Below, piece by piece: positions 2,728 through 12,874 of a DNA stretch of 35,211 bases; the first letter of the stretch is position 1, and each line of letters opens with the position of its first letter. Both the position numbers and the translations under genes were made by a program. This DNA is from Hydrogenobacter sp. Its GTDB lineage: Bacteria > Aquificota > Aquificia > Aquificales > Aquificaceae. The notes under the pieces were generated by a model. The model worked only from the letters and a program-made list of their open reading frames with translations, made no database searches and had not been told where the DNA came from. Location: assembly GCA_023255875.1 (NCBI GenBank), contig JAGDVY010000023.1, positions 1-35,211 of the forward strand, in the 5' to 3' direction.

Positions 2728-2754
2728 AATGGTTCACTTTAGTATCTTATTTAG

Positions 2755-3045
2755 TTACTTAACCCATAAAACATCCGATATTGCACAAATTCCACCATAC
2801 TTTTTAAGCATAGGTTTTACAACTTCCGCTATTCTGTTTGCAGTTTCTTCGTCGCATAAAGTAAACAAATAGCTGTTTTTAAAAACATCCGTAAGTTCAT
2901 CTCCCGCCATTATACCTCTTTCGCCCATTCCAATTACATCTTTAAACACCGAGTATCCAGAAACCCCAACTTCTTGTAGCTTTTCTAAAAGATTGTTAAG
3001 ATGAATGCTGTCAATAACAATTTCCACCTTTTTTGCCTTTTCCAT
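2755..3045 (-). CDS. sbtB: SbtB-like PII-family regulator of the bicarbonate transporter
   Basis: A 96-residue PII-like protein (ferredoxin-like fold) encoded directly behind the SbtA-like transporter, 3 bases after its stop codon, with a purine-rich GGGGGTAAG upstream of the ATG. Family features are VEIVIDSIHLNNLLEKLQE at the first strand-helix, GVSGYSVF (about 27-34), a T-loop region with GMGERG, and the C-terminal KYGGICAISDVLWVK that matches the ending of SbtB proteins. In cyanobacteria SbtB is a trimer that binds adenine nucleotides such as cAMP and AMP and gates SbtA. This copy stops at LWVK and lacks the Cys-flanked C-terminal R-loop of many cyanobacterial SbtBs, so redox control through that loop is not expected. 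Gene order and the C-terminal motif make the assignment good. Confidence 0.85.
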   Translation of the reverse strand: MEKAKKVEIVIDSIHLNNLLEKLQEVGVSGYSVFKDVIGMGERGIMAGDELTDVFKNSYLFTLCDEETANRIAEVVKPMLKKYGGICAISDVLWVK

Positions 3046-3048
3046 GGC

Positions 3049-4041
3049 TTACCCCCATATGTTATTTATTATTGTGTAATATAAAGGAATACCAAAGGAT
3101 ATGTTGAAAGGAAACGTTACAGCTAATGAAGGTGTTACGTATAAGCTTGGGTTAGCTTCAGGAATGGAGATTCTCATCGCAGCAGGAACTGCTATATAGG
3201 AAGCGCTCGCACATAACACTGTAAACATTAACGCATCTCCCTTAGATAAACCAAAAAGTTTAGCTAATCCTATAGCAACGGTCGCGTTAAACACAGGAAG
3301 GAATATAGCAAAACCTACAAGAAATGGTCCTACCTTTTTAATTTCCGCTAAGCGTTTGCCAGCAACAATACCCATATCCAACAAGAAGAATGCTAACATA
3401 CCTTTAAACAAATTTCCAAATAAAGGTTCCATTGCTTTCCAACCCTTTTCACCAGTAATAAAACCTATAGTGAGAGTACCAATTAGAATGTACACAGAAG
3501 GGTTAAGTAAAGATTCGTTCAAAACTTCTTTTAAGTTAAGTCTTGAAGTCTTTCCATTTGAATTATCATTTAAACTTTTTCCTGCAAAGAGCGAAACTAA
3601 GATTAGACCTATAATAATAGCTGGTGATTCCATCAAAGTCATGGCTGCTACCATGTATCCACCATAATTAACTCCAAGCGTGCTTAAGAAGTTACCCGCA
3701 GTTATGAAGGTAACTGCGCTTATAGAACCGTATGTAGCTGCTATTGCAGCAGCGTTGTAAACATCAAACTTTATTCTCAAAACAAAGAAGGCGTAAATAG
3801 GAACTAAAATAGCCATCAACATAGCTAAAAGTAAGACTTTCAGGACATTTCCTGTTATTCCACTCTTGGACAGCTCATAACCTCCATGAAGTCCTATAGA
3901 TATCAGAAGGTAAAAGGAAAAGAATTTAGGTAAAGGCTGAGGAATTTCTAGCGGACTTTTCAATAAGGCTGCTAGCAGTCCTAAGAAAAACATCATTATT
4001 GCAGGGTTAAGTATATTTTGCATTAAAAGGTCCAAACTCAT
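3049..4041 (-). CDS. sbtA: SbtA-family sodium-dependent bicarbonate transporter
   Basis: A 330-residue polytopic inner-membrane protein of the SbtA (DUF897) family. It has about ten hydrophobic segments; recognisable stretches are ILNPAIMMFFLGLLAALLKS at the N-terminus, PLPKFFSFYLLISIGLHGG (about 36-54), TYGSISAVTFITA around residue 105-120, and AVPAAMRISIPEANPSLYV near the C-terminus. A polar cytoplasmic loop rich in Asn, Lys and Ser separates the two halves. It is shorter than the ~370-residue cyanobacterial protein, mainly in that loop. The start is supported by GAGGAGG upstream of the ATG. It lies 28 bases behind the serine-protease gene and directly before the PII-like gene. In this setting it would import bicarbonate for carboxylating enzymes of the reductive TCA cycle. 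Confidence 0.88.
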   Translation of the reverse strand: MSLDLLMQNILNPAIMMFFLGLLAALLKSPLEIPQPLPKFFSFYLLISIGLHGGYELSKSGITGNVLKVLLLAMLMAILVPIYAFFVLRIKFDVYNAAAIAATYGSISAVTFITAGNFLSTLGVNYGGYMVAAMTLMESPAIIIGLILVSLFAGKSLNDNSNGKTSRLNLKEVLNESLLNPSVYILIGTLTIGFITGEKGWKAMEPLFGNLFKGMLAFFLLDMGIVAGKRLAEIKKVGPFLVGFAIFLPVFNATVAIGLAKLFGLSKGDALMFTVLCASASYIAVPAAMRISIPEANPSLYVTPSLAVTFPFNISFGIPLYYTIINNIWG

Positions 4042-4069
4042 CAGCTTACCTCCTCATAATAGTGCATCA

Positions 4070-6737: not shown

Positions 6738-8285
6738 TTAAAAAGGTATTTTTAGGGTACCAATTAGGTATTTAAGGTCATTGTCTGTAAATAAGAGTCC
6801 TACACCACCAAAAGCACCTCTGAGCTTGGAATTCAAAAGGTCATCTCCCCCAAAGCGCACAAAGAGTGGACCCTTTACTTTATAATTTACAGCTACCTGA
6901 AGGTTAGGTTTGAGATTTTTATCCTGTGGTCTGTCACGCCTTCCAAAATCCCACAGGTCAGAAGTAAAGGTGATTCTCTCGTTATAAACAAGATCCACAC
7001 CAATGCCACCAGTGGATTCTTTTAGTCCACCTCTTAGCACCAAGCTTTTATCTCCCATTATGGGAAAGATCCTTGCATACTGTAGGGTAAATTGAGGTTT
7101 AAATTCCTTCTTTACTATAGTCTGGTTAGGAAGGATCTCTTCTCTATAAACCCTACCCCTTGAGTTTCCCACCACCTCAAGAAGGTAATACTTTTGTTCA
7201 TCGGGTTGCAAGGCTATACTTAGTATTCCCTTTGAATCACCCGCTTTGTAAAGTTCTGCTCTAAAGCCTATATAGAGGTTAGTTTTGTCAGCCAGTTCTC
7301 CCGCTTTGGCAAAAGTTTTGGTAGCAGAAGTTATATTTCTGTATAGCTCTTCGTCTTTGACTAGCTTACCCAAAGTGCCCTCACCCCTTTCTATCCTTGC
7401 AAGGATTTTTTGAAGGTTCTCTGTGGCTTCTGCAAGGTTTGAAGTGGTTGCTTTGAGATTCTGCCTATTTTCCACCACAACTGCATTGAGGTTTTTAGAG
7501 AGCTCGTTAAGATTTTTGGCAAGCTCAGGAAGCGTTTCTTTAAGTCCGTATGTAAGTTCTTTTAGGTTTTCAACGGTTTGTCTAAGATCCTGCCTGTTTT
7601 CAACCGCCAGTTTATCCACATCTTGAGCCAATCTGTCTACAGACACTATGGCAGAAGGAAGTGTCCTGTTTAGGTTTGCAAGCAGTATATTGAGGTTAGC
7701 TATAGCTTGTCTGAGATTCTCTCTGTTTTCCACAGATATCTTGCTCAATGTGTCTGAAAGTACCACAAGGTTTTGAACTATTTTCCTTATGTCCTCTCTG
7801 TTCTCTGAAAGAATTATATGGAGGTTTTCTACCATGAGCTTTACAGACTCAGAGGCACTGGTAAGTTCTTTTATCATCCTGTCTGTGTCTGCATAGCTGT
7901 AGGTTTTGGTTATGGTAGAACCCTCAGAAAGTACACCAGAGGAGGGATCACCGGGATTTATAGATAAGTACTTGTCCCCCATAAGCCCCAATGTGCCTAT
8001 CTGAGCGCTTGCATTTCTGTAGAGTTGTATATCCTTATCTATTTCAAACACTACCTCTACTTTTCCATCTTTTAACTCTACACTACGCACCTTTCCACTC
8101 TTTATTCCCGCAACCCTCACCTCCGCACCCTTTGATAGTCCACCCGCATCGTCAAAATAAACTTTATAAACCTTTACGCCGGGTTTTAAAAAGGGAATCT
8201 CTCCAAAGGTAAGCACAATAAAGGCAAAAGCAAGAGCTACAGCAACTATAAAGGCACCTACCTTAAATTCCGTGGACAGCTTCAT
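6738..8285 (-). CDS. MCE/MlaD-family lipid transport protein with predicted outer-membrane barrel tail
   Basis: A 515-residue protein. Residues 8-26 form one N-terminal membrane helix, and residues about 36-113 an MCE domain (VYKVYFDDAGGLSKGAEVRV, GDKYLSINPG), the hexameric pore unit of lipid-transport ABC systems such as Mla. Residues about 135-330 are helical, with four copies of an ENRxx(L/I)(R/K) motif at 161, 186, 229 and 272; the last three are 43 residues apart, which indicates a repeated coiled-coil needle. Residues about 336-515 alternate hydrophobic and polar residues in beta-strand fashion and end in GTLKIPF, with the terminal Phe typical of BAM substrates, so I infer an outer-membrane beta-barrel. 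No MlaE/MlaF permease or ATPase genes are adjacent. The next gene divergent upstream is a peroxiredoxin. The MCE assignment is firm; the barrel is inference. Confidence 0.85.
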   Translation of the reverse strand: MKLSTEFKVGAFIVAVALAFAFIVLTFGEIPFLKPGVKVYKVYFDDAGGLSKGAEVRVAGIKSGKVRSVELKDGKVEVVFEIDKDIQLYRNASAQIGTLGLMGDKYLSINPGDPSSGVLSEGSTITKTYSYADTDRMIKELTSASESVKLMVENLHIILSENREDIRKIVQNLVVLSDTLSKISVENRENLRQAIANLNILLANLNRTLPSAIVSVDRLAQDVDKLAVENRQDLRQTVENLKELTYGLKETLPELAKNLNELSKNLNAVVVENRQNLKATTSNLAEATENLQKILARIERGEGTLGKLVKDEELYRNITSATKTFAKAGELADKTNLYIGFRAELYKAGDSKGILSIALQPDEQKYYLLEVVGNSRGRVYREEILPNQTIVKKEFKPQFTLQYARIFPIMGDKSLVLRGGLKESTGGIGVDLVYNERITFTSDLWDFGRRDRPQDKNLKPNLQVAVNYKVKGPLFVRFGGDDLLNSKLRGAFGGVGLLFTDNDLKYLIGTLKIPF

Positions 8286-8315
8286 AATAGTTTATATTAA
8301 CCTAATTTCTTCTTA

Positions 8316-8399
8316 ATACGCAGAGTGAGAAATTAGTTATATGCCAAAACTTTAGCATACAAAAGAGCTTTAGCGGTTTAGAATTTCTCATCAGCGTAT
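8316..8399. repeat. Long interrupted inverted repeat in the divergent MCE-peroxiredoxin region
   Basis: ATACGC (8316-8321) and TGAGAAATT (8326-8334) are mirrored by AATTTCTCA (8382-8390) and GCGTAT (8394-8399): 15 perfect pairs with a small internal loop (AGAG against TCA). Between the arms are a smaller hairpin TATGC...GCATA and a direct repeat CTTTAGC at 8350-8356 and 8368-8374. No T-run follows on either strand, so it is not an intrinsic terminator. It could be a small structured RNA, a cruciform site or a regulatory leader. Confidence 0.6.
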
Positions 8400-8414
8400 G
8401 CTGTTATTGTATTG

Positions 8415-8420
8415 TATAAT
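8415..8420 (+). promoter_or_regulatory. -10 hexamer of the peroxiredoxin gene
   Basis: TATAAT ends 6 bases before the ATG at 8427. It argues that translation does not begin upstream at the TTG at 8412. The intervening AGGGGT might act as a weak ribosome site if transcription starts farther upstream. Confidence 0.55.
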
Positions 8421-8426
8421 AGGGGT

Positions 8427-8906
8427 ATGCTGAAAGAAGGTGAAAAAGCACCAGATTTTTGTTTGGAAGGGATAGATGAAGAAGGAAAGGAAGGTAGGTT
8501 CTGCCTTAAGGACTTTTTAGGAAAGCCTCTTATTTTGTACTTTTACCCAAAGGATGACACGCCTGGCTGTACCCAAGAAGCTTGCGACTTTAGAGACAGT
8601 ATGTCTGTACTTAGCTCTATGGGTATAAAGGTTGTAGGCATAAGCCCTGATAGTTTATCCTCTCATAAAAAATTCAGAGAAAAACACGGACTTAACTTTA
8701 TTCTGCTTAGCGACCCAAACAAAGAGGTGGCAAAGCTTTACTTTGCATACGGCAAGAAGAAGATGTATGGAAAAGAAACGGAAGGCATCATAAGAAGTAC
8801 CTTTTTAATAGACAAAGAGGGAAAGATAGTAAAAGCTTGGTACAACGTAAAAGCCAAAGGTCATGTGGAAAGCGTGTTAAAGGAGCTAAAGGCATTAAAT
8901 TTATAG
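8427..8906 (+). CDS. bcp: Bcp/PrxQ-type thiol peroxiredoxin
   Basis: A 159-residue atypical 2-Cys peroxiredoxin that reduces hydrogen peroxide and organic peroxides with thioredoxin as partner. The active site is YFYPKDDTPGCTQEACDFRD: the Cys after PG is the peroxidatic cysteine and the Cys five residues later is the usual PrxQ resolving cysteine. GISPDSLSSHKKF and IIRSTFLIDKEG are further family motifs. The first ATG (MLKEGEKAPDF) is used here; the in-frame TTG at 8412 overlaps the promoter. It stands 16 bases before mqnE and probably shares its transcript, giving peroxide defence next to an oxygen-sensitive radical SAM enzyme. Confidence 0.93.
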   Translation: MLKEGEKAPDFCLEGIDEEGKEGRFCLKDFLGKPLILYFYPKDDTPGCTQEACDFRDSMSVLSSMGIKVVGISPDSLSSHKKFREKHGLNFILLSDPNKEVAKLYFAYGKKKMYGKETEGIIRSTFLIDKEGKIVKAWYNVKAKGHVESVLKELKALNL

Positions 8907-10035: not shown

Positions 10036-10094
10036 ATTAAAAAACCTTATATCTTAAGCCCATCACTCCTTCATGAATAAAAGAGCAAGGTTAT

Positions 10095-10100
10095 TATAAT
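10095..10100 (+). promoter_or_regulatory. -10 hexamer of sppA
   Basis: TATAAT ends 10 bases before the ATG at 10111. The predicted leader is only a few bases. Confidence 0.5.
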
Positions 10101-10110
10101 TAAGACCATT

Positions 10111-10947: not shown

Positions 10948-10956
10948 TGCAAAGGA

Positions 10957-10962
10957 TATAAT
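10957..10962 (+). promoter_or_regulatory. -10 hexamer of the restriction-modification unit
   Basis: TATAAT ends 6 bases before the methyltransferase ATG at 10969, so the mRNA should be leaderless. It lies 10-15 bases after the sppA stop. Confidence 0.5.
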
Positions 10963-10968
10963 TATATT

Positions 10969-11817
10969 ATGACTTGGCACAAACTTATCATCGGAAATTG
11001 TGCAAGCATGGAGGAAATTCCCGATGAAAGTGTGCACTTAGTAGTTACTTCACCACCTTACTTTAACGCTCCTTTTGATTACAAAGATATGTTTAAAAAT
11101 TACGACGAATATTTAAATCTTTTGGATAAAGTCGCAAAAGAACTGTTTAGAGTTTTAAAGAATGGCAGGGTTGTTGTGATAAACATTGATGATATGCTTG
11201 TAAACGGTGAAAAATTTCCGATTGTTGCTGACGCAACCAAAATATTTCAAAGTGCTGGGTTTAGATATAGGGACAGAATAATTTGGAAAAAGCCTGATGG
11301 TTATTTAAGGATAAGCAGAAGAAGTGGTGTGCTTTTGCAACATCCTTATCCTATGTACTTTTATCCTGACAATCTTCTGGAGAGTATATTGATCTTTCAA
11401 AAGGGTAAATTTGATTACTCTTCAGTACCAAAAGAAGTAAAAGAGGCATCAAAGATAGACATTAAAGAGTTTTTAGATAACAAATGGTATATGACACTTT
11501 GGGAGATGGTAAATGTTTTACCTAATTCACCACTTGAGAAAGACATCGCTGCTTTTCCTGAAGAACTCCCCTATAGAATTATAAAACTATTTTCCTATGT
11601 TGGCGAAACCGTCTTAGATCCATTTGTGGGAAGCGGAACAACCATGAAGGTGGCAAGACAACTTGGTAGGAATAGTATAGGAATAGAAATTAAAAAGTCA
11701 TTAATTCCAATAATTAAGAAGAAAGTTGGTTTTGATGAACAGTCATTATTTAATAATCAAAATGATACATTTGAAGTGATAATAAGAGAAAATGTTGAGT
11801 ATGGATATATTGGCTGA
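10969..11817 (+). CDS. Type II DNA methyltransferase, beta class (TSPPY)
   Basis: A 282-residue amino-methyltransferase that methylates the same site cut by its partner nuclease. Motif IV is TSPPY at residues 27-31 and precedes the SAM-binding motif I, DPFVGSGTT at 217-225; this order defines the beta class. SPPY is more usual in N4-cytosine enzymes but N6-adenine activity cannot be excluded. The middle region (KNYDEYLN to IIWKKPDG) carries the conserved helical and motif VIII-type segments; the target recognition region is probably around 110-200. The gene is visibly more AT-rich than its neighbours and overlaps the next gene by 26 bases. The recognition sequence cannot be read. Confidence 0.9.
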   Translation: MTWHKLIIGNCASMEEIPDESVHLVVTSPPYFNAPFDYKDMFKNYDEYLNLLDKVAKELFRVLKNGRVVVINIDDMLVNGEKFPIVADATKIFQSAGFRYRDRIIWKKPDGYLRISRRSGVLLQHPYPMYFYPDNLLESILIFQKGKFDYSSVPKEVKEASKIDIKEFLDNKWYMTLWEMVNVLPNSPLEKDIAAFPEELPYRIIKLFSYVGETVLDPFVGSGTTMKVARQLGRNSIGIEIKKSLIPIIKKKVGFDEQSLFNNQNDTFEVIIRENVEYGYIG

Positions 11818-12874
11818 AATCACAGGAATAAAATACAGCCCTTTTTTGTGCAAGAAATTAGAAATTTATGATATTCAAGATCTTGATACTGCTTTGGTCA
11901 AAGATGGCTCTTTTATATTGGATTTAAAAGGTAAAGGACGTGTCGCTTTGAGTTGGTGGGTTTCACCGAAGCGAACGAGATCATACCCTTATGCCAGAGT
12001 GTATGATACTCTAAAGTTTGATGGTAAAAAGGTAACAGTGATCCCTATAATGAAGGATGAAGGTATAGAAGGGGATAGAGATTTCCTGCAATGGGATACG
12101 GTTTCCTTAATGAGTCTACTTGGCATATATGTAATTATTGGCTATTACAAGCATGCGGAAAAGAGTAGAAGATACGCAAATAAAATAACAAACCAAAGAT
12201 TTGATTCAGATTATATTAGAAAGGAGATAAACGATCTTTTATCATTTCAATCGGATGCATTGCATTGGAATCTATATCAAGTAGAAAAGGTCGGAGAAAT
12301 AGCCAAGATTGCGCTATCTTATTATGAACAAATTTCAAAAAGTCTTGGAGTTAAAATGCATTCAATGAGTCATGCAGAGAAAAGAATAAATGAAATTATA
12401 AAAGGTAAAGAAGCTTTTATGAAGCTTTCAAGAGAATTATCAAAAAAAGCCCAAAGCAGAGAAAGTATCACCAAACAGCCAAAAGAAAAATTATCTGGTA
12501 TAAAGGCAAAACTAACAATTAAAAACTATCTTGGAGGATACTACTTTTTTACCTGTGATGAAGTTGAGATTAAAGATGAAACAGTTTATCTGATTGAAGG
12601 TAAGCACAGCAAGCACAATTTAATTCCATCCTTAGAGGATATAAAAGATGGTTTACTGAAAATGATGCTATTTACTAACCTTAAAAAAGTAGAAGTGAAA
12701 GGGAAGGAGTATAAACCTATCGCGGTCCTAAAATTAACTAGCGATCTAATACTCTCAAAGGAAAAATTAAAACCTTCACAGAGTAGAATAATAGATTTAT
12801 TAATGCAGGAAGCAAGACAGAACAATTTTATTTTAAGAATTAACGATACAAACTTAACAAACTTTGCATGTTAA
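11792..12874 (+). CDS. Putative type II restriction endonuclease (PD-(D/E)XK)
   Basis: A 360-residue protein encoded directly after, and overlapping, the methyltransferase. A candidate PD-(D/E)XK core is found at about residues 256-275: TCDEVEIKDETVYLIEGKHS, with acidic D256/E257 followed by E269-G-K271. The N-terminal part (VALSWWVSPKRTRSYPYARV) looks like a separate recognition or substrate domain; I do not recognise a subfamily. Residues about 195-235 are lysine-rich and helical. Codon usage is strongly AT-biased: in 12181-12240 I counted 14 G+C of 60. The start may be the ATG at 11792 or the one at 11801. Function is assigned mainly from partnership with the methyltransferase plus the ExK motif. 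Confidence 0.75.
   Translation: MLSMDILAEITGIKYSPFLCKKLEIYDIQDLDTALVKDGSFILDLKGKGRVALSWWVSPKRTRSYPYARVYDTLKFDGKKVTVIPIMKDEGIEGDRDFLQWDTVSLMSLLGIYVIIGYYKHAEKSRRYANKITNQRFDSDYIRKEINDLLSFQSDALHWNLYQVEKVGEIAKIALSYYEQISKSLGVKMHSMSHAEKRINEIIKGKEAFMKLSRELSKKAQSRESITKQPKEKLSGIKAKLTIKNYLGGYYFFTCDEVEIKDETVYLIEGKHSKHNLIPSLEDIKDGLLKMMLFTNLKKVEVKGKEYKPIAVLKLTSDLILSKEKLKPSQSRIIDLLMQEARQNNFILRINDTNLTNFAC

What the first reader, a model, noticed from the sequence alone, without database searches (positions are those of the whole stretch)
8316..8399. 84-base structured element between divergent mlaD-like and peroxiredoxin genes
Fifteen base pairs with an internal loop, an inner hairpin and a direct repeat CTTTAGC fill most of a 141-base gap. 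Without a T-run it is no ordinary terminator. It may be a small RNA, a cruciform regulatory site or a remnant of a small mobile element.
Basis: seen in the sequence. Interest (0 to 1): 0.52.

Follow-up and report, generated by a model that had tools for sequence, protein, structure and literature searches.

The report
Miniature transposon at a rearrangement junction
The hairpin is a tiny, gene-less relic of a jumping gene, one of about a dozen in this heat-loving bacterium's genome, and it sits exactly where chromosome pieces were rejoined; its parent is unusual because it duplicates an exceptionally long stretch of DNA wherever it lands.

Summary
In detail: an 84-base inverted-repeat structure with no Rfam match. 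The genome holds at least ten further copies with the same terminal repeat, ATACGCTGAGTGAGAAATT. Relatives hold parent insertion sequences (IS) of about 960 bp (a broken 748-bp copy in G004, same genus); the largest MITE is the IS minus its middle. The parent transposase is DDE-type, closest to IS982 but far below that family's cut-off. This genome has no match to its C-terminal half.

The parent makes target duplications of 23-38 bp, variable in length, usually bounded by C^AT...AT^G (15 of 24 copies). IS982 members are listed with 2-10 bp.

The element sits on a rearrangement breakpoint. In two siblings peroxiredoxin adjoins ispH, and mlaD adjoins another gene. Here the ispH and peroxiredoxin sides lie at two different MITEs, each with a diverged copy of the target duplication. 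So a MITE landed between ispH and peroxiredoxin, and recombination between MITEs probably joined mlaD to peroxiredoxin. A regulatory RNA role has no support.

The parts
8318..8397 (.). MITE proper (80 bp), ACGCAGAG...CATCAGCGT
   Evidence: Ends set by the parent IS, whose target duplications begin right outside ACG...CGT; sibling homology on the mlaD side ends at 8317.
8316..8334 (+). left terminal inverted repeat with target-derived AT (8316-8317)
   Evidence: Same 18-mer, with up to 2 mismatches, in 13 other places of the genome; pairs with 8382-8399.
8382..8399 (-). right terminal inverted repeat with target-derived AT (8398-8399)
8316..8373 (-). stretch derived from the 3' (transposase C-terminal) end of the parent IS, with internal deletions
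   Evidence: Aligns to MITE C18:6160-6378 (reverse complement) positions 1-38 (31/38), 67-72 (6/6), 79-92 (12/14).
8374..8399 (-). stretch derived from the 5' end of the parent IS
   Evidence: Aligns to MITE C18:6160-6378 (reverse complement) positions 193-209 (14/17) and 211-219 (8/9).
8284..8317 (.). mlaD-side half of a presumed target duplication, from C^AT (mlaD start codon) to AT^G
   Evidence: In G002 and G001 the same sequence runs on into ...GAT^GACATT; the G000 element starts exactly at that AT. Its second copy was not found: inferred.
8398..8428 (.). prx-side half of the target duplication, ending at AT^G of the prx start codon
   Evidence: A diverged second copy lies on the ispH side of the MITE at C15:1837-1931; the ispH-prx gap of G002 holds it once.
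6738..8285 (-). MlaD/MCE-domain protein gene; next to prx only in this genome among those compared (G001, G002)
   Evidence: Pfam MlaD E 2e-21; neighbour differs in G001 and G002.
8427..8906 (+). PrxQ/BCP-type peroxiredoxin gene; neighbour of ispH in G001 and G002
   Evidence: Pfam AhpC-TSA E 7.7e-38, NCBIfam PRK09437 over its cut-off.

Best explanation
It is a MITE: a non-autonomous internal-deletion derivative of a ~960 bp insertion sequence of Aquificota. The transposase of the parent IS, acting in trans, recognised the ~17-bp terminal repeats and inserted such elements into AT-rich sites. It cut the two strands at C^AT...AT^G some 23-38 bp apart, so repair duplicated the whole interval. 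One MITE landed in the 35-bp gap between the divergent genes ispH and prx, and another upstream of mlaD. Later, recombination between MITE copies swapped flanks, so that mlaD now faces prx across one element (the focal one) while ispH faces another gene across a second. The duplication leaves each gene its own -10-like region and start codon, which may be why the insertions are tolerated. Shown here: copies, parent, deletion structure, target duplications of the parent, swapped flanks. Inferred: trans-mobilisation, recombination through the MITE sequence, tolerance through promoter duplication. The family looks immobile here today, since no match to the C-terminal half of the transposase was found in the assembly.
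For: Copies: 4 further matches to the 84-mer; 28 sites with up to 3 mismatches against 10 for the reversed control; 10 elements at E<1e-13, the focal one not among them. Parent: L034 in G004, 748 bp, broken; intact transposase ORFs of 276-282 aa in G003, G056, G038, G043. Deletion structure: MITE C18:6160-6378 aligns to IS 1-72 and, with short gaps, 609-748. Long duplications: 15 of 24 IS copies, 23-38 bp with 0-1 mismatch. Swapped flanks: (prx, ispH) and (mlaD, C7-left) adjacent in G001 and G002; (C18a-right, C36-right) and (C18b-left, C36-left) adjacent in G002 but at different MITEs in G000. A 24-base match, 28 with the AT edges, is shared by the edges C1-right and C5-right. The ispH-side edge matches the G002 gap up to AT of the prx start codon (score reached by 17 of 20,000 shuffles; best of 21 edges).
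Against: The focal element has no duplication at its own two edges; flank swapping explains this but it removes direct proof of its own insertion. In the edge-pair scan only 2 of 210 pairs exceed the best wrong-strand control score of 30; the ispH-prx pair (30) and the C18b/C36 pair (30) tie with that control and lean on synteny, C18a-right/C36-right scored 18 and mlaD/C7-left 10. Another edge (C15-right) scores 16 against 18. The genome is rearranged elsewhere too: the first 20 kb of the window shows other breaks relative to G002 with no MITE found there, so recombination through MITEs is not proven for each junction. The assembly is in 42 contigs and one MITE is cut by a contig end, so an intact parent IS could hide in a gap.
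Confidence: 0.93

Rival explanations
1. A structured small RNA or cis-regulatory RNA of the mlaD-prx intergenic region.
For: Stable fold on both strands, z -3.55 and -5.63.
Against: No Rfam match; the stem is the terminal repeat shared with a transposase-coding IS; mlaD-prx adjacency is absent from G001 and G002; copies lie beside unrelated genes.
Confidence: 0.03
2. A MITE that has been co-opted as a promoter or regulatory site for mlaD and/or prx (-35 region, protein-binding or cruciform site).
For: It replaces everything upstream of the conserved -10-like regions of both genes; other prokaryotic MITEs carry promoters (PMC10969869, passages).
Against: The consensus scan found 1 promoter-like site in 8200-8500, on the - strand and outside the element, against 0.9 expected. 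The arrangement is not conserved in G001 or G002.
Confidence: 0.12
3. The MITE inserted into an already rearranged mlaD-prx junction; it did not take part in the rearrangement.
For: Other breakpoints of this genome carry no MITE found here.
Against: The ispH edge, now at another MITE, carries the prx-proximal sequence up to AT of the prx start codon, so a MITE was there before ispH and prx parted. A similar pattern is seen at C18a/C36 and C18b/C36.
Confidence: 0.12

Closest known systems
MITEs of bacteria (e.g. Correia elements, MITEAba12, BrickBuilt)
   Same: Short, non-coding, terminal inverted repeats of an IS, several copies in intergenic gaps, said to be hotspots of recombination (PMC10969869, passages read).
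   Different: The parent belongs to an unclassified Aquificota IS group, and its target duplication is far longer than usual.
IS982 family insertion sequences
   Same: Best profile match of the full-length transposases (NF033520, E 9.8e-13 to 2.4e-7); length ~960 bp, one ORF of 276-282 aa, ends beginning AC as in 57 of 69 members (PMC7335449 section 4).
   Different: Scores 31-48 bits against a cut-off of 130; duplications of 23-38 bp against 2-10 bp listed; has an invariant K seven residues after the presumed catalytic E, which IS982 is said to lack (PMC7335449 passages).
IS1202 group and IS1182 family (long or variable duplications)
   Same: IS1202 group members make 16-28 bp duplications (PMC10132070, passages); IS1182 is said to range over 2-60 bp (PMC7335449 section 4).
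   Different: The IS1202-family elements described there (ISAjo2 type) are 1.5 kb with 441-457 aa transposases and TGT ends; no IS1202 profile match was returned, and the IS1182 profile matched only 28 residues at E 0.087.

Membership tests
MITE | terminal inverted repeats matching those of an autonomous IS | tested here: met
MITE | multiple copies in the genome, short, no transposase gene | tested here: met
   11 elements incl. the focal one plus lone ends; no match to the C-terminal transposase half in G000
MITE | flanking target-site duplication | tested here: inconclusive
   None at the two edges of the focal copy; split duplications between different MITEs
MITE | mobilisation by the parent transposase in trans | not testable with these tools
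   needs an experiment
IS982 family (parent IS) | transposase above the family cut-off | tested here: not met
   30.6-48.2 bits against 130
IS982 family (parent IS) | ends beginning 5'-AC | tested here: met
   24 of 24 copies start AC and end GT at the edges set by the duplications
IS982 family (parent IS) | direct repeats of 2-10 bp | tested here: not met
   23-38 bp in 15 of 24 copies (repeats shorter than 10 bp were not searched in the other nine); reference range
IS982 family (parent IS) | no K/R six or seven residues after the catalytic E | tested here: not met
   K242 is invariant after E235 in 4 of 4; E235 as the catalytic residue is inference
Rfam RNA family | covariance-model match at gathering score | tested here: not met
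   Only three tRNAs in the window

The most novel reading that the evidence does not exclude
The parent is a distinct group of DDE insertion sequences of Aquificota whose transposase does not cut with a fixed stagger. It cuts each strand at its own C^AT half-site, 23-38 bp apart, so that whole promoter-sized intervals are duplicated and a divergent gene pair can keep a promoter copy on each side. Its MITEs then act as portable recombination points that re-pair genes, each side keeping its start codon and -10 region, and so have reshuffled this genome.
Probability: 0.4. Interest if true: 0.6.

Novelty: new variant of a known kind. Interest (0 to 1): 0.38.

Why it matters
It removes a candidate small RNA and replaces it with a readable insertion and rearrangement history. 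It also exposes an IS group with unusually long and variable target duplications, which sits badly with the usual picture of a fixed cutting stagger per transposase and could be tested biochemically with a small enzyme from a thermophile. The swapped flanks make this a readable case of MITE-associated gene-order change in a small genome.

Tried and rejected
Small RNA / riboswitch / terminator: no Rfam match, no terminator site. Compensatory change was not counted, because pairing of terminal repeats is expected of the DNA element.

Start-codon targeting: several duplications end at a start codon (mlaD, prx, glyA), so I asked whether that is general. Of the 16 parent copies examined (32 edges), only 6 edges carry an ATG opening a frame of 64 or more codons. 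The C^AT/AT^G preference is better read as a sequence preference: in the 15 clean duplications C precedes in 12 (P 7e-7) and G follows in 9 (P 2e-4) against flank composition.

Promoter (TATAAT) targeting: 14 of 15 duplications hold a TATAAT-like hexamer, but shuffles give 12.7 on average (P 0.29). Not supported.

L033 (G008) matched the 84-mer weakly, and its 27 bases lie away from the terminal repeat; read and dropped. A search for solved relatives of the transposase gave 0. No structure prediction was run.

Papers: searches returned no paper; searches were read as listings (54 showed 15 of 46, 77 showed 12 of 159). I found no description of this IS or MITE; that is a statement about those searches only.

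Full report
What is there. The 84 bases at 8316-8399 lie in the 141-base gap between a divergent MlaD-domain gene (6738-8285, -) and a PrxQ-type peroxiredoxin gene (8427-8906, +). The inverted repeat is real and folds better than shuffles on both strands (z -3.55 and -5.63). Rfam finds only three tRNAs in the window.

Further copies. The 84-mer as a query finds four more places in the genome. The terminal 18-mer with up to 3 mismatches finds 28 sites against 10 for the reversed control. A 218-base copy at C18:6160 finds ten elements at E below 1e-13, itself included and the focal one not. I therefore count 11 elements, plus a lone end at C30:5403 and weaker ends at C19:500 and C30:366. The copies read share ATACGCTGAGTGAGAAATT-like ends; the five with both ends set are 84 to 219 bases long.

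Parent. Same-genus genome G004 holds a 748-bp element with the same ends and a broken transposase. Intact relatives of 276-282 aa occur in G003, G056, G038 and G043; 19 of 61 genomes have a match to the C-terminal half, G000 has none. In a scan of named genomes all 9 loci returned come from Aquificota records. G004 is probably Hydrogenobacter thermophilus TK-6 (size recalled; the paper gives 1,742,932 bp for one version), so the window genome would be a Hydrogenobacter-like member of the Aquificaceae; this is inference.

Deletion structure. MITE C18:6160-6378 aligns to positions 1-72 and, with short gaps, 609-748 of the G004 element, that is, the IS without its middle. The focal copy aligns to that MITE in blocks 1-38, 67-72, 79-92, 193-209 and 211-219, that is, a further shortened derivative.

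Target duplications of the parent. Of 20 copies fetched from G043 (of 23 matches), 19 had both ends found; with five copies from G056, G038 and G003 this makes 24. In 15 of 24 the flanks repeat with at most one mismatch, length 23-38 bp (23, 23, 24, 24, 26, 27x4, 28x3, 32, 34, 38). Two more show imperfect or offset repeats (L065 22 of 26, L082 25 of 25 with two extra bases). Seven, all in G043, show none; some of these look swapped among copies (L073/L074, inference). Edges prefer C^AT...AT^G: C before in 12 of 15, G after in 9 of 15, AT last in 14 of 15. The preference for G is seen in G043 and G003 and not in the four copies from G056 and G038, where T follows. IS982 members are listed with 2-10 bp (PMC7335449, section 4).

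The empty site. In G001 and G002 prx is the divergent neighbour of ispH with a short gap (35 bases in G002), and mlaD has another neighbour. In G000, ispH lies at C15:940-1785 and is followed by the MITE at C15:1837-1931. The ispH-side edge of that MITE continues, in G002, through the prx promoter up to AT of the prx start codon; the prx-side edge of the focal MITE carries the same stretch. The mlaD-side edge matches G002 and G001 up to ...GAT^G, and the element starts exactly there. Thus both edges of the focal element obey the AT edge rule of the parent, but at two different target sites.

Other swapped flanks. C18a-right and C36-right are adjacent in G002, as are C18b-left and C36-left. C1-right and C5-right share 24 bases in the right orientation, 28 with the AT edges. 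For the eight MITEs whose two flanks could both be placed in one sibling (C12, C18a, C18b, C15, C1, C36 in G002; C35, C30b in G001) none has its flanks adjacent there (0 of 8). The other three of the 11 (C18c, C7, C5) could not be tested this way. The genome also has breaks without a MITE: the first 20 kb of the window falls into at least five blocks relative to G002, so a whole-genome control is still needed.

Mechanism. Most likely a transposase once active in the lineage inserted internally deleted copies into AT-rich gaps, duplicating 23-38 bp; recombination between copies then exchanged flanks. The element at 8316-8399 is the product of such an exchange between a MITE upstream of mlaD and one between ispH and prx. 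In G002 the two sites are 14.4 kb apart on one contig, in the orientation that an inversion would join. Its own effect on transcription is unknown and probably small.

Verdict. MITE: firmly supported. Small RNA or cruciform regulator: not supported. The parent IS, with long and variable duplications, is the more interesting part.

Noticed in passing
G043 copies L065-L083: Target duplications of 23-38 bp with C^AT/AT^G edges in an IS982/IS5-like element; far longer than listed for IS982.
   Followed up: partly
window 2745-4061, 10049-10110, 10949-12872: Breaks in collinearity with G002 and G001 that carry no MITE found by the searches used.
   Followed up: no
L184 (G001:C50:97200-98400), after the match to the C35 left flank: A ~70-bp MITE-like element (ACACGCTGGGTGAGAAATT...) at the site orthologous to the left flank of the G000 element C35:62136-62322.
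   Followed up: no
G000 C7:5459 (L009, L190): The neighbour gene of mlaD in G001/G002 appears cut by a MITE near its 5' end in G000, so it may be a pseudogene.
   Followed up: partly
L066 and L072 (G043): Left flank of L072 looks like the reverse complement of the right flank of L066: a duplicated or rearranged region around IS copies.
   Followed up: no
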